From Porpolomopsis calyptriformis (lineage: Eukaryota > Basidiomycota > Agaricomycetes > Agaricales > Hygrophoraceae), in contig OX621176.1 in NCBI GenBank assembly GCA_951640195.1, positions 186,001-250,000 of the forward strand: a DNA stretch of 64,000 nt, read 5' to 3'. The notes below the pieces were generated by a model, which was not told where the DNA came from, searched no databases, and was given only the letters and a program-made list of their open reading frames with translations. Shown here piece by piece: positions 11,701-45,541 of the stretch. Within the stretch, counting starts at the first letter, position 1, and the number at the start of each line of letters is the position of its first letter. A program made the translations under genes and the position numbers.

Positions 11701-12343
11701 AACATCCAGTGCGAATTCAATGGCAAGCGTAGTCTCAACCTACATCGACAATGCAATACCAATTCATATCAGTCAATGGTGGATGAACGCAAGCCAGTAA
11801 CCATACCGTAATACTTTGGATTGACCATGCAATTGACTGGATACAACTGCTGATTGACTGTGCATGCTCGGCATAGTGAATAAACCGCATCATAGCATTG
11901 CGGGAAGTCATCTTTCGTAGCTCTTCCAACGCCGTATTCAATGTGCTATAGAAACATAGATCAGATTCGTTCATTGTTAGCTTTAAAGAGGACGCACAGA
12001 AAGAGACGATCTATGCGGTCAATGGCCACCGAAGAAAGTGTTCCTTCATTCTTGGAGTTTTCAAGAAGTCGATTGAGACCTTGGATCTGCTCTGAAAGTT
12101 TCTCGATGTTTTCTGCTTCACTCATCAGAAGATATCAACATACACACAACGGTTGCAATCCACCTTGATAACATCCAGCACGAATAGCAGACCACCTATA
12201 CCCGTTTTGAGTCCAGGTGTTCGGGCGTCTCCAACAGCATTTTCGACTATTTGAAGGGTTGTTTGCAGGCCGTTAACAGCAGTAGAACACGCCTGCTTCA
12301 ACCTCTCTTTGCTCTCTGGGTTTAACTTGGTAGAGCGAAGCAT
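8786..12343 (-). CDS. NLR-A: NACHT-WD40 immune-type receptor with helical N-terminal domain
   Basis: The N-terminal exons (12343-11590) encode the helical domain usual in agaricomycete STAND proteins (GLKTGIGGLLFVL, then AWSIQSIT), ending in a linker VETTLAIEFALD/EHAIRIREDI across a small intron. The NACHT exon runs 11450-9853, with Walker A GSAGTGKTT and Walker B VVVVDALDE. A 50-bp phase-0 intron (9803-9852) links it to the sensor exon 9802-8786. That exon carries four WD40 repeats ending in RLWDA and a C-terminal cap. Fungal NLRs of this type oligomerise on ligand sensing and trigger heterokaryon- or defence-type responses; the ligand here is unknown. The gene appears intact. It is divergent from the F-box gene, with about 90 bp between starts. 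Confidence 0.85.
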
Positions 12344-25942: not shown

Positions 25943-28839
25943 ATGATACACACCACCATAAACCTACCCACTTTACCGCCCCGTCCTTCACACAACTCCA
26001 TTCAATCCTCAACGGACGGTCAACTCGCTCTCCTCACCAAATCCGCCGTTTACATCCTTGTAATCCTTCCTTTCGGTCTTGATCTTTCGCTAATAACTAT
26101 CGTAGACACCTGATCATGGAATCAGCTTTGATACTCGATCATGGTTCAAAACTATGATCGAGTTTAATAAACAATCCTACGATTGGACCCGTCTTTCACA
26201 AGGTAACATCTCTCTTTAACGAACATTCTCACGCTTGAAGACTGGGCAGCGATATCCCTCGGTTCACTCGACCTCATCCTTCGCGCCGCCGCTTGTTCCC
26301 CGACAAGGTAACGCACTTCACTCCCCCGCCTATCATGCTCATCTCCTTCTCAGTGGTCTCATCGCCACACTCAGCACTAACATGGATCTCTCCCTCTGGA
26401 CCGCCCCAAAAAATCATCTCAAAGGTGAATGGCTCAAGGTCAGTCACCTTCTCCGCCCTTCACTTGTTCTCTTATTCGTGTTTAGATTCAAGACGTCACT
26501 CGCGATTTGATCACCTCGTGCGAACATCAATCACCCACAGCCACGGCCCTTTACGCCCAGATAATCTGTACGTCCTTGCCTTACCTTCCCCTCAGTTTAA
26601 TAACGACCATAGGTATCGCATGGTCATCCCAGCCCGATTTCGGCGTCGAGCCTACACCCGTATCAGACGCTTCCCTTTTTATCGCCGGAAATCGAGCAGG
26701 CTCTATTCTTTTCATGAGGTACAGTCATCCGAAATCAGGAAGATTACGCATGACAGGCGACAAGACCGCTCTGAAAGTCGTCCACACCCTCACCGTCGCC
26801 GACAAGTGGATCACCCATATCGCTCTATCCTCCTGGACACTCACCCGACTCGGAACATGTACTGCCTTTTCCTTTCTTTGATCGCATGATTTAATAATAT
26901 TCGTCAGGCGAGGCTTGCTTAGCCTACGGCCTCTCTGACGGTTTCATCGGTCTGGTCAAAATAACTCAAGCCCTCATTCAGCCCTCGTCCCACGCCCAAA
27001 CGTTCGAACCAGAGTTTTCGGTACAGGCTGGATTTGAGATCGGAGGATGTGCAAGCCATGCTGACCAGCGCGGGATCACCGCATTAACATGGGTTCAAGT
27101 CCCTGGAAAAGACGTCCGTGACGTTTTCTTTCTCACAATTTAATTAAAAACTTTTCTTAGCGGATACTCGTCCATTGCAAACCGGGAGCGGTTTATTTAT
27201 GGTCCCCGTCGCCGTCGACGACCCTTGGCTGGTCCGGACATCGCGTCTTGTTTTTGCAGACCCAAAAGCTTTCTGTCGGGTCCTGTGCGTTGCACCCTGT
27301 CTCGGGGATACAATACATTGACCGCCGAGACGCGCTCATCGTCTGTCTTTTCGATGGATCGTGTCACGTCATTCACGACCTCTCTCTGGAACCAACTTGG
27401 GCAACGACGGGCGGTGACGAAGTAACGACCGAACGTCTTTCCGCCGTTTTGCGTTCCATATTCAACCAAGTTGAACAAGAGGACATGCAATATGCCGATG
27501 TCAACAAAATAAGCGGGATGCTTTCTTATGATGGATCTGCTACTTTCATGTGGCTACACGAGTTCGTCCTCGTTTGTTCACTCCTCATTGAAAAATTTCA
27601 CCCTCTCTTTAAAAAAGAGCCGTTCGGCCTACCGATTTTAGCTACAAACATGACGCACAACACCACAGCACCTTCGTCGTAGCCCGACTGTGGGATGATC
27701 CGGGCGAGGATCAGGCAGTCTTACGAGCGTTTGCTGAAATCGTTGACGCAGCACCCATCGGTAGGTGATATGATTCCCGGTGTTTGGTACCAATGACAGG
27801 GGTCTAGGTCAGGTACCTATTCACACCCTCCGGCCCACTCTGTTCTACCTTCGTCGGGAGGGCGCACTCTCCCGGGTCCACTCTCGCGTTTTGGACATCC
27901 TCCGTCACCGTCCGTCCCCCCCGCTCGATTTCTTTTCGACCCAATTCGAGGTGGGCGGGGAAGTGACTGAGGAGTTGAGAAGTGGGCTGAGAAGGAGTCT
28001 TTGGAGACATCTGTTTGGGTGGAGGTACGTTCGGTCGCTCCGGCTGCGGTTGGCTGTTGCCGATTTTGGTTGGGTAAGATGGGGTGTTAAGTTATTACGT
28101 GCTTTTGTCTTATATGGGGATGAACAGCAGAATTGCTCGGATGATCAGCAGAAACAGGCTGAGTATGGTGAGGTTGCTCAAGATATTTTGAATATGATTT
28201 CGTATAGTGTCCTCTGGACGATCGTTCAACATATCAGGAGAATAGTCAAACTTATTTCTGGTGTGTGTGTTCCCTCCATGTTTTTGTGTGTGTGCGTTTC
28301 TTATTTTCTTTTAAAAAGTAAAGGATGTCCCGTTTATCGCGAGAATAATCACTCGATCGGTACGACCTGGAGCACCTCCTGAGTTGGCTCGAGAAGCAGG
28401 GTGTTTATTAGCCGAAATGAAATCGGTTGTGCCGGTGGAAGGGGACGCGGACGAGCGTTGTCCGGTTTGTCGAGTGGATATCCCTCTTGGGGATGATATG
28501 ACCAATGCGACTTGTTCGAATGGGCACACATGGGGTACGTATGATACCTTTATTGTTTTTTTTTATTCACTCCTTTTTTTGATGTGTTGTGACTTAGCAC
28601 GTTGTTCGATTACGTCGTTCGTATTGGCGACGCCGATGGTGCGGACGTGTCTGGGGTGCACCCGGAAAGCGTTTCTCCCTGTTCCGCGCGAGGATGAGGA
28701 TGGTGATCGGGGCACGAGGAGGGGGTCGTGGTTGTCGATCGGGGAGGATGACGGGGGGATTAGCTGGGTTGTAGAAGATGTGGTCGATGCTGTCAACGTT
28801 TGCTTGTTTTGTGGGAATCGGTTTGTGAATATATTGTGA
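25943..28839 (+). CDS. TFIIIC 90-kDa-type subunit (propeller domain plus C-terminal zinc finger)
   Basis: Exon 1 (MIHTTINLPTLPPRPSHNSI ... DGQLALLTKSAVYIL) is joined by a GT-AG intron to TPDHGISFDTRSWFKT, then DWAAISLGSLDLILRAAACS. This is the N-terminal motif of the TFIIIC 90-kDa subunit (GTF3C4/Sfc9 family). Middle exons carry propeller-like strands (ASLFIAGNRAGSILFM). The C terminus has the family's putative zinc finger: CPVC, then CSNGH, CLGC and CLFCG, ending NRFVNIL. TFIIIC binds internal promoters of tRNA genes and recruits TFIIIB for RNA polymerase III. This is the only apparently intact copy in the window; two damaged copies lie downstream. The exact exon set in the middle is uncertain. 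Confidence 0.82.
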
Positions 28840-29247
28840 ATTTTGGGGCCACTTTACTGGGAGCTGTGTTGAAGCTCAGATGAACAATGAACGCCATCGT
28901 GTATAGTGAATCGGGGATAAACCATAGTCGGGACTAACGTGGAGGCTAGAGACTAGAGAGATGCATAATGAAAATATACTTGTGTCGGGTGCGCGTGCGC
29001 AGATTCGTAGTATATGGTATAATACCTAGAATATACTCGAGATTGTGATCACCTGTCCTGAAATGGGGGAGCGCGACGCGTAAGCTACTTGCTGCGCTAG
29101 ATGGTGGTCAGGAAGTAAGAGCCCTCAGTAATATCCGAGGGCCCGCTACGTCACAAGCCCAGCATTGTTCCGCTTGCCTCACTTTGCTGGGCATTGTACG
29201 ACGAGGGTACGGTCCTTTCAAAAATAATCGACCCATGGCCGACGATT
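28840..29247. other. Spacer between convergent TFIIIC90 and NLR-C genes
   Basis: The first ~140 bp match 36309-36450 after the TFIIIC90 pseudogene, showing that the spacer was duplicated with the genes. Roughly 270 bp here have no counterpart in the second copy. No gene was seen. Confidence 0.5.
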
Positions 29248-32200
29248 CTATGCATCCTGGCTAGCCTGGTGGGGGTATCTCTGTATAATGGATTCTGATT
29301 CGGCATGTCGCCCTTGTAAATAATAGATAAGAGCAAGGTTGCGGCTTGCGATCCTCGTATTCGGATGTTGGGCTCCTAGGGTCTTCTCAAAGCCAGCTGC
29401 GGCCCGCTTGTAAAGTGGCTCAGCCTCGTCGTATCGCTTTTGTGACTCGTAGACACCTGCAAGGCCGTTCACCGACATAAGCGTGTCTGGGTGGTCAGCA
29501 CCCAGATGTTCCTGTTTGCCAGCTAACGCACGCTTGAAGAGCGTCTCAGCGTCATCGTATCGTTTTTGGGCCTCGCAAATACCTGCGAGGTTGTGCACCA
29601 ACGCAAGCGTGGATAGGTGGTCAGCACCCAGATGTTCCTCGAAGCCAGCTAACGCGCGCTCGAAGAGTGCCTGAGCCTCATCGTATCGTTTTTGTGACTG
29701 GTAAACGTTTGCGAGGTTGTTCACTGATGTAAGCGTGGATAGGTGGTTAGCACCCAAATGTTCCTCGTAACCAGCTAACGCCCGCTTGTGGAGCGTCTCA
29801 GCCTCCTCGTATCGTCGTTGTGACTTGTAAACGATTCCGAGGTTGGTCACCAACTTAAGCGTGTCTGGGTGGTCAGCACCCAGACGTTCCTCTCTGCCAG
29901 CTAACGCACGCTTGTAGAGTGCCTCAGCCTCATCGTATCGTCCTTTTGACTGGTAAACGCTTGCGAGATTGTTCATCGACGCGAGCGTAAACGGATGTTC
30001 GCATCCGAATTTCGTTTCGTATGCTTCAAGAACTTGTTTCAACAGTAGTTCGGCATCACCATATCTTCCTCGGCTGTCCAAATACCTCGCGATCTGCCGA
30101 TTTGCGTCAACCAGCTCAAAGTTCGTCCCATACTCGTTACTCCATCGACTCAGCGATCGTAAATGTGGCATGAACTCTTCACATTCAGCCCAACACTTCG
30201 GTGATCTGGGGTCTTCTATCTGTCGGAACGCACCACAAACAAGCGAGACTGACGCCTGAAGCCATTCTTGATACGAGCCCTCTTTCTTCGCGCCTTCGTG
30301 CCTCACAAATCGGATTAAATCGTGTATCCACAGTGAAGAGTTTCGTTCAGTGGATCGATATTCCACCAAAGACAGCGCCTGTAGTTTCTGTAAAGCCGTC
30401 CGAAATCTGACTGTTGAGCAAATCATAGTGACCAATGAACGAAACTCGAGGGATATATCAGAATCAGGTTCGGGTTGAGACGGGGTATCCTTTGGTGGGT
30501 ATTGTGGATGCAACCACTCTTTGGCCGCTTTAGTGATCATCGCAACTGGGATATTTTCCGGGTCAAGGAAGGAAAGAAGTTTGAAGAGATTGCTGGAATC
30601 GACAGATTCTTTTTGCAGTTCATTGAACTGCTTGGTGAAAGTAGTGGCTACCGATCGCTCTTGGTATTGATTTAAGTCATTTTCCCATTCGACTACCTGT
30701 AGTCACCAGTGAATATCAAGCGAATACGATGTGAATACATGAACCTACATCTCTCTTTTCGTCACCCATGTAAAGGTTGTACGTTTCATCGAGGGTCGTG
30801 TGCGTTTCTCTCATAAACGACGCCGCTTGGACAACGGCAAGAGGAAGGCGACCAACGCATTCGACCACTTGCTCGGCAAGGCTTAATAGAGACGGGGTTG
30901 CGGTCTTCGTGTCGATACGAGCATTTCGTAGAAGAAGGTTTGCGGAATCGCGCGGTTCAAGGGGATGAAGTTGGGATATAGACTGATCATTTCCTGCCAT
31001 AGTCACCAGAGCCTCAGCGACATCTTTCGTCCGTGTAGTGAAAAGAATGTTGCCTTGCGTATTTCTGCAAGGAAGGTGCGTCTCAAAAAATTCCATTGAA
31101 TTTCTGTCGACGTTGTCGAAGATGAGAAGCCATTTATCCTGGGCTTGTTCCAACCACAGTCGAGCTGCAGTCAGTTTCGCAGTTTGATCCTGCAGGGATT
31201 GATCGGGATGACGGACCAGATCCAGAATGTTGACAAGCCCATTGTTTAGTTTGTCGGTAGTGGTAGCTGATACCCAGAAGATATAGGAGTACCGGCCTTG
31301 ATCGAACGACAATTTGACGTAGTGCAATATTAGCTGAGATTTGCCAACGCCGGGCATTCCATACATGGCACAACAGCTTGGTACGCCGTTCTGTGTCTTG
31401 CTCAAAGCATTTTGCAGAAAATCTAGTTCTTGCCCCCTTCCGGTGAAGTGCTTTGAGAGGATACCTCTTGGAGCATTAGTGACGGTACCTACAAATGAAG
31501 CGAGTCAGATATGAAAGTTGAAACGGTGCAAACAATTGGACTGAGTTGCGGGCTGGGATGATCGTGAAACACTACGAGTGATGGAGTACCCAAGAATTTC
31601 TTTGGAGATTCGAGAATAAATAGGGGGCGAGAATAAGGAATCGTTTAGGTAAATCCTTGGTATATATGGGATATTGTGCCCACAGATGAAAAAAGTCCCG
31701 AGGAATCGAACAGCAAAGCCAAAGACTCATCTCACTCACCTAACTTGATGGGGCGTGCGATATCATTTACAAAGCGCTCAATAGCCTTGAACAGTTTGCG
31801 GAACTGACTATCATCCGCCCCACTAAATTTGCACATCCCGGTGTGATCGTCGTCAATACCTTCTTCTACCTCAGACGCGTCACCAATAACCGCCGAATCA
31901 TACTCGACTATCTAATGGGGTTTCGTGGGTAAACATCATCATCAATCAGGAAGCTCAAGGTATCATACCTTCCCGCTCAGACCGGGCACCCCGGTGATAT
32001 CCTTCGTCTCATAAAATGAATGGATTTGGAATGCGTTATCTTTCAACATAATCGCAAAGTCCTTTGTGATTCTGTTCAACGTCTCGCTGTCCGGGTCCAA
32101 GGCATCGAGTATTTTGGTGTCGACACGACGAAGAGTGAGGGTGTGTATTGCCTTCGAAAGAGCAACCCAGTTGGTTCCACGATGGGGCGTTCCAAAGAAC

Positions 32201-33368
32201 ACAATAGCACGCGTCGATTTATAAACGGGTTCAAGATGTTTTTGATATTTCGCAACACTTTTTGATTTCTGAATGGCCTAGTCAAAGCATCAGTCATTTT
32301 GGCTACGAACGAGATGGATAGCTTTTACATCTTTGACCACAAGTCCGCCCAAACTGTGTGCAATGAAAATAATGGGCCTCATAGGCTGGATAGTCGTTAA
32401 TACCTTTGCATCATGACAAGTGTAAATGGACCTCACATCATTACGACGTTCGCCTTCAAGAGCAGATAGCATATCCATCGCAAGCCGGGAAATATTAGTG
32501 GTGCTCATCCTCGTAAACAGATGGGCCACATCTGTATCGTATCCGTACGTTATAATGCGAGCGTTTGGGAACTTCTTTGGAAATAGGTCGTTTGGCCAAA
32601 ATACTTCTGATTTATCATTGCCTGGACCTGGCTTATGAACTTCCTTTGTCCATGCATCCTTCGGATGTCCACCAAACCCATGAACAAGTACAATACTGTG
32701 AGAATCAGATTGAGGTCCATTAGGCGGCAGCGTAGTGGCAAGGCAGCTCACTCTACAATAGGGCCTCCTTTCCCATCGTCACCATTCGCGAGGAGTGTGA
32801 AGCCGCACCGGCTCACCAGAGGTATTGCAGCAAGGGGAATGAGTTGAACAATAATGGATCCTCGGTCCTGGTCATCGTCGTTACCGTTTGGGTTCCTCAA
32901 GGCCAAAGAAATTTCTATTTTAAAATGTGAGAAGTGTCGGTGTGGATGAACACATACGCATACCGGAATCGACAGCTTGTTGTAGCTTACGAATATCAAT
33001 TTCAATGGCCCCAAGGCATGGATCAAGTATAGATAATAGATTGGACTTCTTATGCATGATTCGAAGTGACAACACAAAAGGTTGATCCTTCACAACAGAA
33101 CTGGACCTTCTAAGTAATCCATTGGCATGGAGGAAAGGTGTAAAACGTACATTGTGAACTCTTGGTTCCATTTTGGATTCCTGCCTTGCCAGCGAATCTG
33201 GGTGTTGGCCGAAAAGCCTCCACGAATTTTTACATAGGCCTTGAGACCGCCGGGCAATATAGGCAACCTTTCCGCTCGAATAACTAGCCATATGTATAGG
33301 TGACTGTTGCCATGCGCCGTTGAACGGAACGTACCTCGAAGAGAATAAGTAGTGATAGTTGAATCCAT
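29248..33368 (-). CDS. NLR-C: C2 / alpha-beta hydrolase / NB-ARC / TPR receptor
   Basis: Reading from about 33368, a C2-like domain (LPGGLKAYVKI, then WQGRNPKWNQEF; DPCLGAIEIDIRKL) is followed by an alpha/beta-hydrolase (VLVHGFGGHPKDAWT; nucleophile elbow AHSLGG; FFGTPHRGTNW). A ~250-bp intron (31490-31739) precedes the NB-ARC exon, with P-loop GMPGVGKSQ, Walker B-like WLLIFDNVD and sensor motif NILFTTRTKDVA. A 52-bp intron (30697-30748) leads to a winged-helix region and five 42-residue TPRs plus a terminal half-repeat, ending HQASQDA. Related fungal receptors pair a lipase-like effector with a nucleotide switch and repeat sensor. The start is uncertain because the duplicated TFIIIC90 block begins about 155 bp upstream. 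No internal stop was noticed. Confidence 0.8.
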
Positions 33369-33524
33369 AGGCCAAGGTCGCCGCAGTATCAAGGATATCA
33401 GTCCAATTCGGTTGAAAGTTATCCCATTCGCACCAGTTTTTTGTACTCGAGCAAATGTGGCGTTGATCGTGGCACCGGAACACACCGTTATGTCAGATAC
33501 GGCTCCGGTCCGAGAGTGCCAGAC

Positions 33525-36308
33525 CAACTCTCCTCACCAAATCCGCCGTTTACATCCAAGTGACTCCTTCCTTTCCATCCATAATCCTTACTAACTTGAT
33601 TCGAGTAGACATCCGATCCTGGCATCAGCTTTGATATTTCTGTAACTAGTCAAGATGGTTCAGGACCATGATCGAGTTTAATAAACACACCTACGACTGG
33701 ACTTGTCTTCTCTTTAACACGAGGGCCTGGTTCACAGCCATATCCCCCGGTTCACTCGACGTCATCCTTTGCGCCGCCCAACCAATCTTACACGAGGTGC
33801 CAGGTGAGGCACTTCACTCCATCCCTCCCATTATTCTCGTCTCCCTCTCAGTGGCCTGATCGTCACACTCAGCACCAACATGGATCTCTCCCTCTGGACC
33901 GCACCAAAAAATCATCTCAAAGGAGAATGGCTCAAGGTCAGTCGCCTTCTCCGCCCTCCTTGCTTTCTTATTCATTTGATCGCCTCGTGCGAAAATCTAT
34001 CACCCATAGCCAAGGCCCTTTACGCGCAGAAAACCTGTACGTCCTCGCCCCCTGTCCTGCCCTCAGCTCACAACCACCGACAGGTATCGCATGGTCATCC
34101 CAGCCCGATTCCGGTGTTGAGCCTACACTCGTATCAGACGCTTCCCTTTTCATCGCCGGAAATCGAGCAAGCTCTATTGTTTTCATGAGGTACAGTCATC
34201 CGAAAAGAAGAAGAAAAAACGTGACAGGTTTACAGGTTTGACCGCAAGACCTCCCTTAAAGTTGTCCACACCCTCAGCCGCCAAGTGGATCACCCTTCTC
34301 GCTCTATCCTCCTGGGCACTCACCAGACTCGGAAAATGTATTCCCTTTCCCCTTCTTTGATGTCATGATTTAATACGATTCGTCAGGTGAGGCATACTTA
34401 GCCTACTGCCCTTCTGACGGTTTCATCGGTCTTGTCAAAATAACTCAAGTTCTCATCCAGCCCTCGTCCCACGCCCACACGTTCGAACCAGAGTTTTCAG
34501 TGCAGGCTGGGTTTGAGATCGGAGGATGTGCAAGCCATGCTGACCAGCGCGGGATCACCGCGTTAACATGGGTTCAAGTCCCTGGAAAAGACGTCCGTGA
34601 TGTCTTTTTTTCTTGCAATTTAATTAAAAGCTTTTCTTAGCGGATACTCGTTCATTGCAAACCGGGAGCGGTTTATTTATGGTCACCGTCGCCGTCGACG
34701 ACCCTTGGCTGGTCCGGACATCGTGGCTTGTTTTTGCAGACCCAAAAGCTCTCTATCGGGTCCCGTGCGTTGCCCTGTCTCGGGGATACAATACATTGAC
34801 CGCCGAGATGCGCTCGTCGTCTCTCTTTTCGATGGATCGTGTCACGTCATTCGCGACCTCTCTTTGGAACCAAATTGGTCGTCGACGACGGGCAGTGATG
34901 AGCTAACGACCGATCGTCTTTCCGCCGTTTGGCGTTCCGTGTTCAACCAAGTTGAGCAAGAGGACATGCAATATGCCGATGTCAACAAAATAAGCCGGAT
35001 GCTTTCTTATGATGGCTCTGCTACTTTCATGTGGCTACACAAGTTCGTCGTCATTTATTCACTCCTGATTAAAAATTACCTCTCCCTCAAAGAGCTGTCC
35101 GGCCTAGCGATTTTAGCTACAAACATGACGCTCAACACCACAGTATTTTCGTTGTAGCCCGACTGTGGGACGATCCGGGCGAGGATCAGGCGGTCTTGCG
35201 AGCGTTTGCTGAAATCGTTGACGCAGCACCCATCGGTAGGTGATATGTTTCCCGGTATTCGGTACCAATGACGGGGGGGTCTAGGTCAGGTACCTATTCA
35301 CACCCCCCGACCCACTTTGTTCTACCTTCGCCAGCAGGGCGCACTCTCTCGGGTCCACTCTCGCGTTTTGGACATCCTCCGTCACCGTCCGTCCCCCCCG
35401 CTCGATTTCTTTTCGACCCAATTCGAGGTGGGCGGGGAAGTGACTGAGGAGTTGAGAAGTGGGCTGAGAAGGAGTCTTTGGAGACATCTGTTTGGGTGGA
35501 GGTACGTTCGGTCGCTCCGGCTGCGGTTGGCTGTTGCCGATTTTGGTTGGGTAAGATGGGTGTTAAGTTATTGTGTGCTTTTGTCTTATGTGGGATGAAC
35601 AGCAGAATTGCTCGGATGATCGAGAGAAACAGGCTGAGTATGGTGAGGTTGCTCAAGATATTTTGAATATGATTTCGTATAGTGTCCTCTGGACGATCGT
35701 TCAACATATCAGGAGGATAGTCAAACTTATTTCTGGTGTGTGTTCCCTCCATGTTTTGTGTTTGCGTCCCTTATTTCTTCAGCGACAACAGTGAAGGATG
35801 TCCCGTTTATCGCGAGAATAATCACACGATCGGTACGACCTGGAGCACCTCCTGAGTTGGCTCGAGAAGCAGGGTGTTTATCAGCCGAAATGAAAACGGT
35901 TGTGCCGGTGGAAGGGGACGCGGACGAGCGTTGTCCGGTGTGTCGAGTGGATATCCCTCTTGGGGATGATATGACCAATGCGACTTGTTCGAATGGGCAC
36001 ACATGGGGTACGTATGATAACCTCTATATGTTTATTCACTCCTTTTTTTGATGTGTTATGACTTAGCACGTTGTTCAATTACGTCCTTCGTATTGGCGAC
36101 GCCGATGGTGCGGACGTGTCTGGGGTGCACCCGGAAGGCGTTTCTCCCTGTTCCGCGGGAGGATGAGGATGGTGATCGGGGCAGGAGGAGGGGGTCGTGG
36201 TTGTTGATCGGGGAGGACGACGGGGGGATTAGCTGGGTTGTGGAGGATGTGGTCGATGCTGTCAGCGTTTGCTTGTTTTGTGGGAATCGGTTTGTGAATA
36301 TATTGTGA
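33525..36308 (+). pseudogene. TFIIIC90 second copy, 5'-truncated and frameshifted
   Basis: This is a close copy of 26020-28839 that begins inside exon 1 (LLTKSAVYI), so the start codon is missing. The second exon acquires an in-frame stop after a short indel region near 33640. A 5-base deletion near 34285 (compare CTCACCGTCGCCGACAAG in the intact copy) breaks the frame again. The 3' part, including the CPVC/CSNGH and CLGC/CLFCG zinc-binding residues and the NRFVNIL end, remains open and very similar. It therefore looks like a recent duplicate that has lost its N-terminal propeller. Whether the 3' part is still transcribed cannot be judged. Confidence 0.85.
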
Positions 36309-36521
36309 ATTTTGGGGGCCACTTTACACCCTTGGGAGCTGTGTTGAATCTTATGAACAATAAAATCGAAGATCGTGTTTAGTGAATCGGGGATAAGCCA
36401 TAGTCGGAACTAACGTGGACGCTAAAGATTAGAGACGCATAATGAAAATATAATACGCGAGGCTACAGTGCGATCAAAAATAATAATTCATGAATGGATA
36501 CTCGACCCATGGCCGACGATT
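36309..36521. other. Spacer between TFIIIC90 pseudogene and NLR-D
   Basis: This is the duplicated counterpart of 28840-29247, shorter by about 190 bp. No gene was seen. Confidence 0.5.
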
Positions 36522-39500
36522 CTACGCATCCTGGCTAGCCTGGTGGGGGTATCTCTGTATAATGGATTCTGATTCGGCATGTCGCCCTTGTAAATAATAG
36601 ATACGAGCAAGATTGCGGCTTGCGATCCTCGTATTCGGATGTTGGGCTCCTAGGGTCTTCTCAAAGCCAGCTGCAGCCCGCTTGTAAAGTGGCTCGGCCT
36701 CGTCGTATCGCTTTTGTGACTCGTAGACACCTGCAAGGCCGTTCACCGACATAAGCGTCGATAGGTCGTCAGCACCCAGATGTTCCTGTTTGCCAGCTAA
36801 GGCCCGTTTGAAGAGGGTCTCAGCGTCATCGTATCGTGTTTGTGCCTCGTAAACACCTGCGAGGTTGTGCACCAACGCAAGCGTGGATGGGTGGTCAGCA
36901 CCCAGGTGTTCCTCGAAGCCAGCTAACGCGCGCTCGAAGAGTGCCTGAGCCTCATCGTATCGTTTTAGTGACTGGTAAACGTTTGCGAGGTTGTTCGCTG
37001 ATGTAAGTGTGGATAGGTGGTTATCACCCAGATGTTCCTCGTAGCCAGCTAACGCACGCTTGTGGAGCGTCTCAGCCTCCTCGTATCGTCGTTGTGACTT
37101 GTAAACGATTCCGAGGTTGGTCACCGACTTAAGCGTGGATGGGTGGTCAGCACCCAGACGTCCCTCGTAGCTAGCTGCAGCCCGCTTGAAAAGTGACTCG
37201 GCCTCGTCGTATCGGCTTTGTGACTTGTAAACGTCCGCGAGGTTGTTCACCGACGTAAGCGTGGATGGGTGGTCAGCACCCAGATGTTCCTCGGAGCCAT
37301 CTAACGCCTGCTTGCAGAGCGTCTCAGCCTCATCGTATCGTCCTTGTAACTTGTAAACGCCTGCGAGGTTGTGCACAGACATAAGCGTGTCTGGGTGGTC
37401 AGCACCCAGATGTTCCTCGCAGCCAGCTATCGCACGCTTGTAGAGCGTCTCAGCCTCGTCGTATCGTCCTTGTGACCCGTAAACAAATGCGAGGTTGTTC
37501 ACAGATGTAAGCGTGGATGGGTGGTCAGCACCCAGATGTTCCTCGGAGCCAGCTAACGCCTGCTTGCAGAGCGTCTCAGCCTCGTCGTATTGTCCTTTTG
37601 ACTTGTAAACACCTGCGAGGTTGCCCACAGACATAAGCGTGTCTGGGTGGTCAGGACCCAGATGTTCCTCGCAGCCAGCTAACGCACGCTTGTAGAGCGT
37701 CTCAGCCTCGTCGTATTGTCCTTGTGACTGGTAAACACCTGCGAGGTTGCCCAGACATAAGCGTGTCTGGGTGGTCAGGACCCAGATGTTCCTCGCAGCC
37801 AGCTAACGCACGCTTGTAGAGCGTCTCAGCCTCGTCGTATCGTCCTTGTGAGTTGTAAACGCTTGCAAGGTTGTTCACAGACATAAGCGTGTCTGGGTGG
37901 TCAGGACCTAGATATTCCTCTCTGCCAGCTAACGCCCGCTTGTAGAGCGTCTCAGCCTCGTCGTATTGTCCTTGTGATTGGTAAACACTCGCAAGGTTGT
38001 TCACAGACGTAAACGTGTCTGGGTGGTCAGCACCCAGATGTTCCTCGGAGCCAGCTAACGCCCGCTTGTGGAGCGTCTCAGCCTCGCCGTATCGTCCTTG
38101 TGACTCGTAAACAAATGCGAGGTTGTTCACCGACGTAAGCGTAGATGGATGTTCGCATCCGGATTTCATTTCGTATGCTTCAAGAACTTGTTTCAACAGT
38201 AGTTCAGCATCACCATATCTTCCTCGGCTGTCCAAATACCTCACGATCCGCCCATTTGCGTCAACCAGCTCCAGGTTCGTACCATACTCGTTACTCCATC
38301 GACTCAACGATCGTAAATGTGGCATGAACTCTTCGCATTCAGCCCACCGCTTTGGTGATGTGGGGTCTTCTATCTGCCGGAACGCACCACAAACAAGCGA
38401 GACCGACGCCTGAAGCCATTCTTGATACGAGTTCTCTTTCTTCGCGCCTTCGCGCCTCACAAATCGGATTAAATCGTGTATCCACAGTGAAGAGTTCCGT
38501 TCAGTAGATCGATATTCCACCAAAGACAGCGACTGTAGTTTCTGTAAAGCCGTCCGAAATTTGGCCGTTGAGCAAATCATAGTGACCAATGAACGAAACT
38601 CGAGGGATATATCAGAATCAGGTTCGGGTTGAGACGGGGTATCCTTTGGTGGGTACTGTGGGTGCAACCACTCTTTGGCCGCTTTAGTGATCATCGTAAC
38701 GGGGATATTTTCCGGGTCAAGGAAGGAAAGAAGTTTGAAGAGATTGCTGGCATCGACCGATTCTATTTGCAGTTCATTGAACTGCTTGGTGAAAGTAGTT
38801 GCTACCGATCGCTCTTGGTATTGATTTAAGTCGTTCTCCCATTCGACTACCTGTAGTCACCAGTGAATCACAATTGAGTACAATGTGAATACATGAACCT
38901 ACATCTATCTTTTCGTCACCCATGTAAAAGTTGTACATTTCATCGAGAGTCGTGTCGGTTTTCCTCATAAACGACGCCGCTTGGACAACGGCAAGAGGAA
39001 GACGACCAATACATTCGACCACTTGCTCGGCAAGGCTTAATAGAGAAGGGGTTGCGGTCTCCATATCGACGCCGGCATCTTGTAGAAGAAGGTTTGCGGA
39101 ATCGCGAAGTTCAAGAGGATGAAGTTGGCATATAGACTGATCATTCCCTCCCATAATTGCCAGAGCCTCAGCGACATCTTTCGTCCGCGTAGTGAAAAGG
39201 ATGTTGCCTTGCACATTTCTCCGAGGAAGGTGCGTCTCAAAAAATTCCATTGAACTGCTGTCGATGTTATCGAAGATGAGAAGCCATTTATCCTGGACTT
39301 GTTCCAACCACAGTCGAGCTGCAGTCAGTTTCGCAGTTTGATCCTGCAGGTATCGATCGGGATGACGGACGAGATCGAGAATTTTTGCAAGTCCATCGTT
39401 TAGTTTGTCGGTGGTGGTGGCTGATATCCAGAATATGTACGAGTACTGGCCTTGATCGAACGACAATTTGGCGTAGTGCAATATTAGCTGAGATTTGCCG

Positions 39501-39858
39501 ACCCCGGGCATCCCATATACTGCACAACAGCTTGGTACGCCGTTCTGCGCCTTGCTCAAAGCATTTTGCAGAAAATCCACTTCTTTCCCTCTCCCGGTGA
39601 AATGGACAGAAAGACGACCCATAGGGGAATCGTTGAATGGTGATGCGGGTCCACGCTCACGATCTAGTTAATAAAGCAAGTCAGACGGGATGTTGTGGAT
39701 GCAAGAATCAGAGATCGCTTTTTGGGAACGCAGGCTAGTCGCTGCTCGGGATATCTTTATGGCACTAACTCACCTTGCGGATAGACATGGATGTTGTACT
39801 GATCACGCCCGACAAAGCTGAGCATACTGTCATGGATTTGAGCGCTAGGCAAAGACAT
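36522..39858 (-). pseudogene. NLR-D: QIHDS motif / NB-ARC / expanded TPR receptor, frameshifted in the repeats
   Basis: Exon 1 (39774-39858) encodes a 28-residue module with AQIHDSMLSFVGRDQYNIHV. A 110-bp intron (39664-39773) links it in frame to DRERGPASPF...HFTGRG and the NB-ARC domain (GMPGVGKSQ; WLLIFDNID; NILFTTRTKDVA). A 52-bp intron (38851-38902) leads to the winged-helix region and about twelve 42-residue TPRs plus a terminal half-repeat. At about 37752 two bases are missing relative to the neighbouring repeat (TTGCCCAGACA versus TTGCCCACAGACA on the plus strand). The protein would then stop at 37702 after about three TPRs. The nine downstream repeats stay open to HQASQDA, so the loss is recent, an assembly error in identical repeats, or a tolerated truncation. 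Confidence 0.8.
39774..39858 (-). other. NLR-D first exon: short Gly/Asn/Gln signalling-type motif
   Basis: The 85-bp exon ends at CCGCAAG/GTGAGTTAG, exactly as NLR-B exon 1 does. Shared residues with NLR-B are QIHDS, a VG pair, a Q-x-N core and a final PQ. A short hydrophobic/Asn/Gln/Gly motif at the extreme N terminus of an NLR is the usual place and style of amyloid-type signalling motifs. That role is inferred. Confidence 0.6.
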
Positions 39859-40217
39859 GATGGTGGTGAAGAAGAAAGATAGGCTGCACAGCCTCAAGGG
39901 GTTCCTCAAGTTTTGAACCAAATCAGTCAATAGGCGGCAAACGCTCGAAATCGATACATATACCAATATTCTGGTCAATATTCAGAATACCCGTTCACCA
40001 TCTAATCTCGCTGTCCTGAGATACAGAAGCCGTTCCCGCTTACCCTTAACGAGGTCCGGAACGTTCCCAGAACCTGGAGATAAAAGAAGAAGGGAGGAGC
40101 GCACTGAGCAGGCAGCTTAGGTCACTGGTGCCTAGTGACGCCCAGAGCGGGAGCGAGATGTGCGTGAGTCGGTCAAAGTGGGCGAGAGAGCCATGCGCAG
40201 TAGCAACGACGAGGGAT
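39859..40217. other. Spacer upstream of NLR-D
   Basis: This is the 5' flank of NLR-D (-). No gene was seen. It presumably holds the NLR-D promoter. Confidence 0.4.
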
Positions 40218-40888
40218 GCCAGGTCAGGTACCTATTGATTCCCTCCAGTCGATTCTGGTCCACCTCTGCCGGGAGGGCTCCACTTTCGCGTTTTGAACAT
40301 CCTCCGTCACCCTCGTCTCCGTCGCTCGATTTGTTTTCGACCAAAGTTGAGGTTGGTTCTTGTGTCTTGGGTGGAGTGACTGAGGAGTTTAGAGGGGACA
40401 TCTTTAGGTGGTGGTACATTCGGTTGCCCCGAATGCGGTTGGATGTTGTGGATTTCCGTTGGATAAGATGGGTGTTAATTTATGATTTTTTTTTTTGATG
40501 TGAGATGAATAACGAAATTGCTCGGATGATCGGGAGAATCGGGGAGTTTATTGGCTGAACTGAAAGACCTTGAGCCGTTGAAGGGGGAAGAAGCGCACTA
40601 GCGTGGATATCCCTCTTCAGAATAAGGTGACCAGTGCGACTTGTTCAAATGACACACGTCGGGTACGTATATAATCCCCCTTCCCCTTTGTTTTTGTTGT
40701 TTGACATGGTACAATTTAGCACGTTGTTCGGTTACGTCGTTCGTATCGGCGACGCGAATGGTGCGGACGTGACTGGGATACACGCGGAAGGTGTTTCTCC
40801 CTGTTCCGTGGGAGGATGAAGATGAAGATCGGAGCAGGAGGGGCCATGGCTATCGATGGGGGGACTAGCTGGATTGCGGAGGACGTGA
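40218..40888 (+). pseudogene. TFIIIC90 3'-end relic, third copy
   Basis: The stretch from AGGTCAGGTACCTATT onward aligns with 27805-28830 of the intact TFIIIC90-like gene. Recognisable words include TCGCGTTTTG, CATCCTCCGTCACC, GACTGAGGAGTT and GATATCCCTCTT. It is shorter, with deletions, and more diverged than the copy at 33525-36308, so it is probably the older duplicate. It sits directly upstream of NLR-B and marks another junction of the TFIIIC90/NLR duplication. Confidence 0.75.
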
Positions 40889-40949
40889 GAATGTACTTTA
40901 CATGTATTTGTATTTGTTCCGAGTATCTTTCCTCTTGCCTGTGCCTACC

Positions 40950-43900
40950 ATGCCCACCACGCAGATTCACGACAGTACTGTCAACCTCGTAGGGGGTAAT
41001 CAGGTCAACCAAAACAACACCTATCATATACATCCGCAAGGTGAGTTAGCGCCCTAATGAGCTGTCTCAAGCAGCGATCAGCCCCGGGCGGCGATTTCGT
41101 CTGTTCGCAAAAAGCGATAGATGTATAGTGAAATTGACTAAGGCATTCTAGGCGAACACCTCCCATATGCCCTCTTGTCTCCTTTCAACTGCAAAGATCG
41201 AACGCGATGCTTAGAAGGTACCAGGGCCGACATTCTTGATGAGATTTTTCGTTGGATCGGTATTGGCGATTCACAACCTTGTCCCGAACTTGATCGAGAC
41301 AAAGACGCCGATACGGTTGCAGCGGATACTCGTGTATTCTGGATCAACGGATCGGCTGGGACTGGGAAAACAACGATTGCCTATACCGTTGCGGATGTGT
41401 GTAAAGCGTACGGTGTGCTTGGCGCAAGCTTCTTCTGCTCGAGGGACGATGCGGATTGCAGTAACCCGAATCTTATCTTCACCACCATCGCCTATCAGCT
41501 TGGGATGTTCAACGCTTTGTTCCAAGCGGAGGTTACTCGTGCTATGAAATCAAATCGCGACATTGGCTATACCACACCTCCATATCAACTTGAAGAGCTC
41601 ATCATAAAGCCTCTTCGCACACTCAGAAACTCGATCCCTCCATGCGTTATTGTATTGGATGCGCTCGACGAGTGTAAGGAAGCTGGGATGACCTCAGTGA
41701 TCTTATCATCACTCTCTCGTCGTGTCAACGAACTCTTCCCATTAAAGTTCTTAGTGACAAGTCGGCCGGAAAGCCATATTACCGCTGTCTTTAAATCAAG
41801 CAAATTGAACCCGGTCACTCATCGATACGTTTTACACGAAGTGGAATTAGGCGTCGTGCAGAGCGATATCGAACACTACCTGTCGACAAAACTCGCTTTC
41901 ACGAGAGAGTTATATTGCATCAACGATAAATGGCCTTCCGAAGCAGATATCCATTCCCTGACAATTTTATCTTCTGCACTTTTTATCTTCGCGTCCACCT
42001 CGGTTAGGTTCATCGAGGATCGAAACTATTCTAACCCCAAGGATCAACTCGCGCGCCTTCTGTGCAATTCAGCTACGGCGACAGAACCTTCATCACCCGA
42101 TTACGGCCTTGATCAATTGTATACCCAAGTGTTGAACCATGCTTTCCCCACCATATCATCTCATTTTTCTGGTCGGCTGAAGAAGATTCTAGGCACTATT
42201 ATTCTTCTTCGAGATCCACTTTCTTCACCTGCTGTCGAACGCTTACTAGGTGTGCAACCGGGGACGGTTCAAGAGACTTTGCGTCATCTTCACTCGGTGA
42301 TCATGGTGCCAGATAATGATAGCCAAGTGATTCGAACTCTTCACCCATCTTTTTTCGACTTTATAACGAATCCGGCTCGATGTCTAAATCCACAATGTGT
42401 TGTTGACCCTGGAAGCCAGCATACCCTACTTGCGTGGGCCTGTCTAGATGTTATGAAACGACTGAAGCGAGATATCTGTGGAATTAGGAATCCGTCATTG
42501 CTCAACAGCGAAGTGGGCGACCTTCCGACCCATGTGATGACTTTCATCAGACCCGAACTGCAATATGCATGTCGTCACTGGGCTTGGCACCTAGAGAACG
42601 CATCCATTGACATTCTTATCGACCCCCTAAACAAGTTTCTTTCGAAATATTTACTGTATTGGGTTGAGGCACTGAGTCTTATGGGAGATCTGCGAAATGG
42701 TCTCCTTGCCTTGCGTGCAGCACAACAAGTTATCGCTGTTCGTTGTTTCCCCTCTCGGCAATTCGCAAAACTGACTGAATTTGTCAGAAATCAGCTAGAG
42801 ACGTGACGGATACGATGGCTTTACTTCGTGATTGCGAGCGATTTACTCTGGAATTTTTCCCGGTCATCAGTGCTTGTTCCCTTCAAGTATACCACTCTGC
42901 ATTGCTGTTCACTCCTGAAGAAGCTTTAATCAAACAGACGTATAGGAGAGAGTTGGACATTCCGATAAAAGTGATCAGTGGATTGGATGAGGGATGGAAT
43001 TCATGCATCCGGACGATAGAAGGACATTCCAATGGGGTGAAGTCTGTCGCGTTTTCCCCTGATGGGTCACGTATCGTTTCTGGATCTACGGACAATACGG
43101 TTCGACTGTGGGATGCGGTTAGCGGGGCACATCTCAACACATTCATGGGACATTCTGAATGGGTATATTCGGTCGCATTTTCCCCCGATGCTACGCGTAT
43201 CGTTTCTGGATCCCTCGACAAAACCATTCGGCTGTGGGATGTAGCTAGTGGTGCACATCTGAACACTTTCATGGGACATTCCTTTGTGGTAACTTTGGTG
43301 ACCTTTTCCCTCGATGGAACGCGTATCGTTTCTGGATCCGGTTTTACTGTTAGCCTGTTGGACGCAGTCAGCGGCGCACATTTAAACACTTTCAAGAGTT
43401 CCCATTGGGTAAATTCGGTCGCATTGGCCCCCGATGGGATGCGTATTATCTCTGGATCCTACGACACAACTGTTCAGCTGTGGAATGCTGTCAGCGGCGC
43501 ACACCTGGCCACTTTAGAGGGACATTCCATGTCTGTAAATTCGGTCGCGTTTTCCTCCGATGGCTCACGTATCCTTTCTGGATCCGCTGACAAAACTGTT
43601 CGGCTGTGGGACGCGGTTAGCGGCGCGCATCTGAACACATTCGAAGGACATTCCATGTCTGTAAGTTCGGTCACATTTTCCCCAGATGGCACGCGTATCG
43701 TTTCTGGATCCTACGACACAACCGTTCGCCTGTGGGACACAGTCAGCGGTGCATTTATGAACGCTTTCATGGGACATCCTAATTTCATAAATTCGGTTGC
43801 ATTTTCCCCCGATGGCACACGTATCGTTTCTGGATCCGATGACAAAACTGTTCGGCTGTGGGACGCAGTTGGCGGTGCAAATGCGAAAACTTTCATGGCA

Positions 43901-45541
43901 AATTCCAATCTTATCAAATTGATCACATTTTCCCCCGATGGCACGCGTATCGCTTCTGGATTCGACAAAACTGTTCAGCTGTGGGATGCGGTTAGCGGAG
44001 CACATCTCAGTACTTTCAAGGGCCATTCTGGTGGGGTAAATTCAGTCACCTTTTCCCATAATGGCACGCGTATCGTTGCTGGATCTGAGGGCGGCACCCT
44101 TCGGTTGTGGGACATAGTCAGTGGTACACATCTGAACACTTTCAAGGGACATTCCAATGTGACTTCAGTCGCTTTTTCCCGAGATTACACGCGTATCGTT
44201 TCTGCACACTCCCAAAAAATCGTTCATTTATGGGACGCAGTCACTGGTGAAAATCTGAGCACTTTCGACGAAGATTCCATGTGGCCAAGCTCGGTCTCAT
44301 TTTCCTCTGATAGCACGCGTATCGTTGCTGCATCCTTCCACAAAACACTTCGGTTGTGGGACGCAGTCAGCGGTGCACATCTGAACACTTTCGAGGGACA
44401 TTCTGGTTTGGTAAATTCAGTCGCATTCTCCGCAGATGGCACGCGTATCGTTTCTGGATCCGATGACAAAACCGTTCGCCTGTGGGACACAATCAGCGGT
44501 GCGCCTCTGAACACTTTCGAGGGACATTCTGGTTGGGTAAATTCAGTCGCATTCTCCGCCGATGGCACGCGTATCGTTTCTGGATCCAATGACAAAACCG
44601 TTCGCCTGTGGGACACAATCAGCGGTGCGCATCTGAACACTCTCGAGGGACATTCTGGTTGGGTAAATTCAGTCGCATTCTCCGCCGATGGCACGCGTAT
44701 CATTTCTGGATCCCACGACACAACTGTTCGCCTGTGGGACGCAGTCAGCGGAGTAAGTCTCAACACATTCAATGATTCCAATCGGGTAATGTCGGTTGCA
44801 TTGTCCCCCGATGGCACCCATATCATTTCTGGATCCTTCGACAAAACTGTCCGGCTGTGGGACGTAGTCAGTGGTGCATGTCTGAACATTTTCAGAGGAC
44901 ATTCTCTGTCTGTAAATTCGGTCGCGTTTTCCTCCGATGGCTCACGTATCCTTTCTGGATCCAACGACAAAACTGTTCGGCTGTGGGATGTGGTTAGCGG
45001 CGCGCATCTGAACACCTTCATAGGACATTCCAATCAGGTAAATTCGGTTTCATTCTCTCCGGATGGCACACGTATCATTTCCGGATCCCACGACAAAACC
45101 GTTCGGCTGTGGGATGCTGTCAGTGGCGCACATCTCATCACTTGGGCAGAATATCCTAAATGGGTGGAATCGGTTGCGTTTTCCTTCGATAGGCCTCGCA
45201 TCGCTTCTGGATCCGGCAGCAAGACTGTTCAGCTGTGGGATGTATTCAGTGGTACACATCCGAACACCCCCCACTCGCATTCCGTCGATGCTGAATCGAT
45301 CGCTCGATCCGGAGACTTGTTATCTACCGATGGAACTAGTCCAATATTTGGTTCTATCTCACGGGACGGTTGGGTACATTCCCACACTCTGAATCGACGC
45401 ATTTTTTGGGTTCCGTTCTCTCATCGACCAATAACGTGGGATGCAAAAGGAGTTCGTGCCGCTTTTGGCACAGAGGATAATCGTCTCATTATCCTTGATT
45501 TTTCGGGCATGGAAGTCTATTTTCGTAATCTCATGCTATAA
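40950..45541 (+). CDS. NLR-B: QIHDS motif / NACHT / 18 WD40 repeats
   Basis: Exon 1 (40950-41040) encodes MPTTQIHDSTVNLVGGNQ... and ends PQ. A 111-bp intron leads to the NACHT exon 41152-42737 (HLPYALLSPF...RCLEGTRADILDE; Walker A GSAGTGKTT; Walker B VIVLDALDEC). A 50-bp phase-0 intron (42738-42787, donor GTTCGT, branch CTGAC, acceptor GTCAG) joins it to the WD40 exon. That exon carries 18 repeats of about 42 residues (SVAFSPDGTRIVSGS..KTVRLWDAVSGAHLNTF). A C-terminal cap ends GMEVYFRNLML. Repeats 12-14 are almost identical. The NACHT core matches NLR-A closely while the N terminus does not. The gene appears intact. Eighteen repeats could fold as two or more propellers. The ligand is unknown. 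Confidence 0.88.

What the first reader, a model, noticed from the sequence alone, without database searches (positions are those of the whole stretch)
29248..45541. N-terminal module swapping between unrelated NLR cores in one locus
NLR-A and NLR-B share a NACHT-WD40 core but differ at the N terminus (helical domain versus QIHDS exon). NLR-C and NLR-D share an NB-ARC-TPR core but differ at the N terminus (C2-hydrolase versus QIHDS exon). B and D, whose cores are unrelated, share the same first exon, the same donor (CCGCAAG/GTGAGTTAG) and parts of intron 1 (GCAGCGA and AAAAAGCGAT in both). C and D share the 3' end of the intron before the NB-ARC exon (TCTGACTYGCTTYATT). The exchange points therefore lie in introns. 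This is a natural record of exon shuffling that rewires sensor cores to different effector modules, between neighbouring genes.
Basis: partly seen in the sequence, partly recalled or inferred. Interest (0 to 1): 0.88.

Follow-up and report, generated by a model that had tools for sequence, protein, structure and literature searches.

The report
Shared first exon on fungal receptors
A fungus carries about a hundred copies of one tiny first exon joined to two different families of immune-type receptor genes, with the old seam still visible inside the intron, and one nearby gene is a more recent patchwork of two relatives.

Summary
The QIHDS exon is not private to NLR-B and NLR-D: 113 places were found genome-wide (some weak), 96 of them 52-433 nt upstream of an NB-ARC (51) or NACHT (45) core. 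Intron 1 is a mosaic. Its 5' part is shared by both core families (NB-ARC-only profile: 15 of 21 NACHT introns, 0 of 420 shuffles). Its 3' part is core-specific (0 of 24 and 0 of 31 cross-hits) and recurs before helical-type NACHT cores (8 of 18; shuffles 8 of 900). This seam is old and genome-wide: B and D are no closer than an average NB-ARC/NACHT pair, nor are same-contig pairs (p 0.29). NLR-C is a younger chimera: the C2-hydrolase half of a gene about 105 kb away on a D-type core, switching between 31448 and 31445, about 40 nt inside the NB-ARC exon, not in the intron. Repeated exchange is suggested, not shown. Architecture swapping in fungal NLRs is known; my searches found no report of such nucleotide-level seams.

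The parts
8786..12343 (-). NLR-A: helical (weakly MLKL-like) N terminus, exons within about 12343-11520; last intron ends 11451; NACHT exon from 11450; WD40 frame 8786-9811
   Evidence: the end of its last intron resembles that of QIHDS-type NACHT genes
29248..33516 (-). NLR-C: C2 domain + alpha/beta-hydrolase N terminus (5' end not fixed), NB-ARC exon from 31488, TPR frame 29248-30702
31446..33516 (-). stretch of NLR-C that follows gene X (C14:324.3-327.1 kb): hydrolase exons, last intron (its 3' half more weakly) and the first ~41 nt of the NB-ARC exon
31445..31448 (-). switch point of NLR-C, inside the NB-ARC exon
   Evidence: best split of 216 sites leaves 44 X-like and 9 D-like on the left, 17 and 146 on the right; within the exon 13 of 13 sites at 31483-31448 are X-like; duplication match 29391-31450 / 37547-39604 ends here
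39774..39858 (-). NLR-D exon 1 (QIHDS type), 85 nt, phase-1 end
39664..39773 (-). NLR-D intron 1 (110 nt): 5' block shared across cores to AAAAAGCGAT at 39723-39714, then NB-ARC-type 3' block
38912..39663 (-). NLR-D NB-ARC exon (3' end not fixed)
36522..38856 (-). NLR-D TPR region, reading frame shifted near 37.75 kb
40950..41040 (+). NLR-B exon 1 (QIHDS type), 91 nt, phase-1 end
41041..41151 (+). NLR-B intron 1 (111 nt): 5' block shared with NB-ARC genes to AAAAAGCGAT at 41109-41118, then NACHT-type 3' block
41152..45541 (+). NLR-B NACHT and WD40 coding region
26028..28978 (+). neighbour block of the first tandem unit, 87% identical to 33528-36452
33528..36452 (+). neighbour block of the second tandem unit; its left end abuts the 5' end of the X-like stretch of NLR-C (33516)

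Best explanation
Two events of different age are recorded. (1) Old: a cassette of about 200 nt (roughly 45 nt of 5' leader, the ~90-nt QIHDS exon and the 5' part of the following phase-1 intron) is joined, within the intron near an AAAAAGCGAT landmark, to NB-ARC-TPR cores in some genes and NACHT-WD40 cores in others. In this NACHT family it stands where 49 of 100 listed members have a helical, weakly MLKL-like domain. Both classes then multiplied, to about a hundred copies in all, so the sharing by neighbours B and D is inherited, not a local exchange. Whether the cassette or the cores moved cannot be told. (2) Younger: after tandem duplication of a neighbour-gene + NLR unit (order inferred), copy C took the C2-hydrolase 5' half of a gene about 105 kb away, with the switch inside the conserved start of the NB-ARC exon. 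Shown: seams, phase, copy numbers, chimera. Inferred: the proteins are NLR-type receptors whose C-terminal repeats sense and whose N terminus signals. The short exon most likely acts as a signalling tag of the Agaricomycete short amyloid-like motif kind, coupling both receptor families to shared downstream partners; the helical and hydrolase versions probably carry an effector in the same protein.
For: Position: 96 of 113 exon-1 places lie 52-433 nt upstream of a listed core on the same strand (51 NB-ARC, 45 NACHT; at E<1e-3 35 and 43). Of 100 NLR-B-type NACHT cores used, 45 have QIHDS, 49 helical, 6 neither found, none both. Helical: 0 of 60 NB-ARC cores that I picked from the 151 matches; hydrolase: 5 of those 60, 0 of 100 NACHT. 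Mosaic intron: (15 of 21 vs 0 of 420; 11 of 19 vs 0 of 380). A joint 5'-block profile gave 44 hits in the letters then in hand, none more than 250 nt from an exon 1. 3' block: 8 of 18 helical introns at 2 bits or more vs 8 of 900 shuffles; no cross-core hits (0 of 24, 0 of 31). Upstream cross-core likeness is confined to 38-57 nt next to the start codon: 19 of 19 matching pairs among 32 genes, collinear. NACHT core tree, 53 rows: helical/QIHDS needs 2 changes, 1 not excluded. Chimera C. Short motifs of like look, picked by eye, precede both core types in other proteins.
Against: No transcript data. The AU test on full exon plus leader rejects one NB-ARC clade (p 0.0024), which a single old join with clean vertical descent would not predict; it is not rejected without the variable tail (p 0.145) or on the intron interior (p 0.29). 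Only 19 of 24 NB-ARC and 21 of 31 NACHT introns were long enough; 10 of 18 helical introns did not reach 2 bits. The AAAAAGCGAT landmark (2 mismatches allowed) is found in 9 of 24 NB-ARC and 18 of 31 NACHT introns (mononucleotide shuffles 67 of 2750). The letters searched come mostly from NLR loci. The 3' half of C's last intron is only weakly like X (34 and 40 of 60 columns). No effector bearing the motif was found, but of 17 unassigned copies only 6 were read. Search lists were capped (100 of 225 NACHT candidates scored, 150 of 190). Exon-1 letters were had for 60 of 96 assigned genes; 56 were used.
Confidence: 0.78

Rival explanations
1. Recent exchange between neighbouring genes (B with D, C with D) by recombination inside introns, as first proposed.
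For: B and D start codons lie about 1.1 kb apart and the genes share exon 1 and the 5' intron part; C and D are tandem duplicates.
Against: B-D identity is average (65.4% vs mean 66.3%) and same-contig pairs are no closer (67.0 vs 66.1%, p 0.29). The exon is genome-wide. C's partner is about 105 kb away and the switch is exonic.
Confidence: 0.04
2. Recurrent, continuing transfer of the exon-1 cassette between NB-ARC and NACHT genes across the genome (ectopic gene conversion), on top of the old join (an addition to the best explanation, not exclusive of it).
For: Exon-1 tree of 56 genes: the core label needs 10 changes (bootstrap 9-11), starred branches force 3, AU p 0.0024 against one NB-ARC clade. 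10 of 56 genes have their nearest exon-1 core stretch only in the other core family. Mean identities NB-NB 67.2, NACHT-NACHT 66.9, NB-NACHT 66.3%. B differs from its closest paralogue more in exon 1 and leader than in the intron.
Against: AU no longer rejects on conservative columns (p 0.145) or intron interiors (p 0.29). Core labels are still clustered: shuffled labels need 18.3 changes, and shuffled labels give 19.1 other-core nearest genes on average against 10 observed. The tail is rich in indels and the bootstrap had not settled. No link to proximity.
Confidence: 0.3
3. No exchange: the short exon and the intron block resemble each other through selection (a signalling motif, a splicing element) or chance.
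For: Short motifs of this look precede NLR cores in proteins of other sources, so the peptide is probably under constraint.
Against: Intron interiors match across cores far above shuffles, in the letters in hand only next to this exon, while the 3' halves do not cross cores.
Confidence: 0.08
4. The core moved, not the exon: an ancestral gene with exon 1 and intron 1 had its NOD core replaced (same seam, other direction).
For: It gives the same seam; unrooted trees cannot polarise it.
Against: In the NACHT family a large helical-type group carries a like 3' intron block without the exon (8 of 18), which fits arrival of the exon more simply on that side.
Confidence: 0.25

Closest known systems
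Combinatorial domain assortment of fungal NLRs (Dyrka et al. 2014, PMC4986451; passages seen)
   Same: Highly similar NOD domains carry different N-terminal domains; repeated architecture invention is inferred.
   Different: In the passages seen the inference is from protein architectures, and a term search found no 'intron' in the main text. Here the nucleotide seams are located.
Short amyloid-like motifs of Agaricomycete NLRs, NLR05/08/22/29/44 meta-family (Wojciechowski et al. 2022, PMC9815663; sections 19 and 28 read)
   Different: Membership of the QIHDS peptide could not be tested (no profile here). Exon and intron structure is not treated in the sections read.
Exon shuffling in brown algal NB-ARC-TPR genes (Zambounis et al. 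2012; Teng et al. 2023; known here only from a passage in PMC10197012 and citations there and in PMC12258605; the 2012 paper is not held)
   Same: NB-ARC-TPR genes diversified by exon shuffling.
   Different: From recall, that concerns the repeat exons; here it is the N-terminal module, between two NOD families.
Sordariales NLR survey (PMC12258605; passages seen)
   Same: Amyloid and sesB-like N termini occur with both NACHT and NB-ARC.
   Different: Protein-level assortment in ascomycetes; no intron seams in the passages seen.

Membership tests
Fungal NLR (NB-ARC-TPR) | NB-ARC domain followed by TPR repeats | tested here: met
   NLR-C and NLR-D: PF00931 77.8 and 75.3 bits (cut-off 23.5), TPR_12 230 and 181.8 (cut-off 30.1); the D frame is broken in the TPR array
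Fungal NLR (NACHT-WD40) | NACHT-type NTPase followed by WD40 repeats | tested here: met
   NLR-A PF05729 28.5 (cut-off 26.7); NLR-B PF05729 23.9 (below), but PF24883 91.4 (cut-off 24.8); WD40 615.5 bits in B; A's WD40 frame was read, not scanned
Agaricomycete amyloid-like NLR motif (NLR05/08/22/29/44) | short motif at the extreme N terminus before the NOD | tested here: met
   exon 1 gives 25-36 residues before the core exon in the 24 aligned copies
Agaricomycete amyloid-like NLR motif (NLR05/08/22/29/44) | match to the published motif profiles | not testable with these tools
   profiles not held; only the textual description was read
Agaricomycete amyloid-like NLR motif (NLR05/08/22/29/44) | same motif on the C terminus of a separate effector protein | tested here: inconclusive
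   96 of 113 copies lie upstream of NLR cores; of 17 others 6 read: 5 look like NLR remnants, 1 shows exon 1 and a NACHT-type intron with its core unread; 11 unread
Agaricomycete amyloid-like NLR motif (NLR05/08/22/29/44) | aggregation or prion behaviour | not testable with these tools
   needs experiment
MLKL-like (HeLo/BaMLKL) N terminus for NLR-A | profile match above cut-off | tested here: not met
   PF22215 MLKL_N is the best match, E 2.3e-4, 21.1 bits, below the cut-off of 27, with a peptide whose exon joins I guessed; no relevant solved relative
Exon shuffling (seam in an intron, phases compatible) | seam in an intron: QIHDS between NB-ARC and NACHT | tested here: met
   exon 1 ends CAAG| in 54 of 55 genes
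Exon shuffling (seam in an intron, phases compatible) | seam in an intron: NLR-C | tested here: not met
   switch at 31448/31445, inside the NB-ARC exon that starts at 31488

The most novel reading that the evidence does not exclude
A roughly 200-nt leader-exon-half-intron cassette behaves as an interchangeable signalling tag that is still being copied between two NLR superfamilies throughout the genome. Sensor family and downstream pathway are thereby uncoupled by recombination at a fixed non-coding seam.
Probability: 0.27. Interest if true: 0.75.

Novelty: new variant of a known kind. Interest (0 to 1): 0.5.

Why it matters
[quoted passage not shown] This one genome keeps two kinds of DNA seam: an old one inside an intron shared by two NOD families, and a younger one inside an exon with relatives of both parents identifiable. 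That makes the mechanism of NLR diversification testable by strain comparison. It also suggests that NB-ARC and NACHT receptors may feed one common signalling partner.

Tried and rejected
Neighbour exchange for B/D: not supported by the proximity test. Intronic switch for C/D: rejected by diagnostic sites; note that in the intron part of that alignment D is poorly aligned, so the sites that count are those inside the exon. A repeated-exchange claim from the exon-1 tree alone: the first tree had badly trimmed rows and was redone; the AU result there was not reproduced on conservative columns or intron interiors, so it is kept as a rival only. Pairwise B-D intron comparison alone is weak. Unassigned exon copies as effector partners: six of 17 read. 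Five look like NLR remnants (L034 and L041, L046 and L055, L106); the sixth (L105) shows exon 1 and a NACHT-type intron, core not read. Pfam and PDB searches of the exon-1 region and the helical domain gave nothing decisive. Exact-string searches for the intron element found 8 of 103 loci and nothing in the window; the element is diverged.

Rows dropped or doubtful: one pseudogene (C14:634107) for lack of a donor; three of the other 59 genes (no start codon found, or a doubtful peptide); one helical gene without a recognisable acceptor, and another probably cut at a wrong acceptor that stayed in the count; one of two identical NACHT rows; an NACHT gene without a picked acceptor left out of the intron tests (55 of 56 used). 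Letters were had for only part of the genes: 53 of 94 typed NACHT cores and 56 of 96 assigned exon-1 genes. The NB-ARC list typed for N-terminal kind was 60 of 151 matches, picked by me; the helical search list was cut by the tool.
Full report
Setting. The window is part of a 33.5 Mb, 17-contig genome. The best named relatives of its NLR proteins are mostly agaricomycete ones, so I treat it as an agaricomycete fungus; the species is not known. NACHT and NB-ARC cores are abundant: 69 and 120 Pfam matches, and 101 and 151 matches to the NLR-B NACHT exon and the NLR-D NB-ARC exon. These include fragments and are lower bounds, since only the best candidates are scored (100 of 225, 150 of 190).

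All four NLRs exist. A lies outside the stated coordinates. A/B and C/D share cores. B and D share exon 1, the splice donor and parts of intron 1. For that single pair the intron likeness is modest (4 of 2000 and 1 of 2000 shuffles as good).

Genome-wide view. A DNA query and a typed consensus peptide (matches down to E 0.57) together give 113 exon-1 places. Of these, 96 lie 52-433 nt upstream of a listed core on the same strand: 51 NB-ARC and 45 NACHT, out of 127 and 113 cores listed. At E<1e-3 the numbers are 35 and 43. Among 100 NLR-B-type NACHT cores, 45 have this exon, 49 have the helical N terminus of NLR-A, 6 had neither found and none both.

Is it an intron? In 55 genes with letters the interval is 49-134 nt, lengths mod 3 are 20/18/17, and exon 1 ends CAAG| in 54. 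Unspliced reading would stop or shift frame in 50 of 55. No transcripts were available.

The seam. A profile of NB-ARC introns (donor hexamer and last 40 nt removed) hits 15 of 21 NACHT introns at 2 bits or more, and 0 of 420 dinucleotide shuffles; the reverse profile hits 11 of 19 against 0 of 380. A joint profile run over all letters then in hand (the window and L001-L103, mostly NLR loci) gave 44 hits, none further than 250 nt from an exon 1. The last 40 nt behave in the opposite way: no cross-core hits (0 of 24, 0 of 31), while the NACHT block hits 8 of 18 last introns of helical-type NACHT genes at 2 bits or more (8 of 900 shuffles); the other 10 do not reach that. One helical gene had no recognisable acceptor and was left out; another was probably cut at a wrong acceptor and stayed in the count. 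So the shared piece ends inside the intron, near an AAAAAGCGAT landmark, which with 2 mismatches allowed is found in 27 of 55 introns (67 of 2750 mononucleotide shuffles). At the 5' end, cross-core likeness among 32 genes with enough upstream sequence is confined to 38-57 nt next to the start codon in 19 of 19 matching pairs.

Age and direction. In a tree of 53 NACHT cores, helical versus QIHDS needs 2 changes and one is not excluded, so A and B differ through an old event. In the exon-1 tree (56 genes, 162 columns, bootstrap not settled) the core label needs 10 changes (shuffled labels 18.3), and one NB-ARC clade is rejected (AU p 0.0024). On conservative columns (p 0.145) and intron interiors (29 genes, p 0.29) it is not. 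10 of 56 genes have their nearest exon-1 core stretch only in the other family, against 19.1 on average with shuffled labels. Mean leader-plus-exon identities are NB-NB 67.2, NACHT-NACHT 66.9, NB-NACHT 66.3%; same-contig cross pairs are not closer (67.0 vs 66.1%, p 0.29), and B-D stands at 65.4%. I conclude that the sharing by B and D is inherited from a genome-wide cassette, and that repeated exchange is possible but not shown.

NLR-C. The hydrolase of C is 87% identical (protein) to one before the NB-ARC gene at C14:324-327 kb (gene X), about 105 kb away, whose core is only 62% identical to D's. At DNA level C follows X through the hydrolase exons and the first part of the last intron (about 88% over 33520-31607), more weakly through the 3' half of that intron (34 and 40 of 60 columns), and again at the start of the exon; from there it follows D (90.2% over 850 bp). 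The best split of 216 diagnostic sites lies between 31448 and 31445 (left 44 X-like and 9 D-like, right 17 and 146). D is poorly aligned in the intron part, so the telling sites are in the exon: 13 of 13 at 31483-31448 are X-like. The switch is thus about 40 nt inside the exon that starts at 31488. The window self-comparison independently ends the C/D duplication at 31450/39604. The two copies sit in tandem units with an 87% identical neighbour block (26028-28978 and 33528-36452).

Function. By Pfam these are NACHT-WD40 and NB-ARC-TPR proteins. The helical N terminus of A is closest to MLKL_N but below the cut-off, with a peptide whose joins I guessed; C's N terminus matches C2 and alpha/beta-hydrolase models below their cut-offs. 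Short motifs of like look, picked by eye, stand before NB-ARC cores (P0006, P0045) and NACHT cores (P0066, P0073, P0143, P0170) in proteins of other sources. Wojciechowski et al. 2022 (sections 19 and 28 read) report a basidiomycete family of such short amyloid-like motifs with both NOD types. I infer that the QIHDS exon is a tag of this kind, but the published profile could not be run, and no effector carrying it was found: of 17 unassigned copies 6 were read, 5 of them NLR remnants by look and 1 an exon 1 with a NACHT-type intron whose core was not read.

Known or new. Dyrka et al. 2014 (passages) already infer frequent N-terminal/NOD reassortment from proteins. Five literature searches (listings) and passages of PMC12258605, PMC10197012 and PMC4986451 showed no description of intron or exon seams in fungal NLRs; brown algae are the cited case. 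I therefore call it a new variant of a known kind.

Noticed in passing
window 36522-38856: NLR-D's TPR array changes reading frame near 37.75 kb, so as assembled D does not encode a full-length receptor (or the assembly has an error there).
   Followed up: partly
window 40200-40538 and 40603-40887: Two fragments 71-76% identical to parts of the duplicated neighbour block (27.8-28.7 and 35.3-36.3 kb) lie between D and B, perhaps the remains of a third unit.
   Followed up: no
L046 (C9 near 209.5 kb) and L055 (C1 near 3899.4 kb): Near-identical copies (by eye) of a degenerate QIHDS-NACHT gene lie on two different contigs, suggesting recent dispersal of a pseudogene.
   Followed up: no
window 40895-41151 compared with L031: Between NLR-B and its closest paralogue the leader (21 of 51) and exon 1 (62 of 90, 12 gap columns included) are less alike than intron 1 (96 of 111), unusual for a coding exon (exon cut about 2 nt off).
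   Followed up: partly
window 43019-45268 and 36660-38164: The WD40 and TPR regions repeat with a 126-nt offset and high internal likeness, as described for fast-evolving fungal NLR sensors.
   Followed up: no
window 42779-42806 and 9724-9811: In both NLR-B and NLR-A the NACHT frame and the WD40 frame overlap in different frames, perhaps a short intron that was not resolved.
   Followed up: no
C14:459674 and C14:483864 (L029, L028): Two QIHDS-NACHT genes 24 kb apart on opposite strands have identical leader and exon 1 and, as printed, the same intron 1.
   Followed up: no
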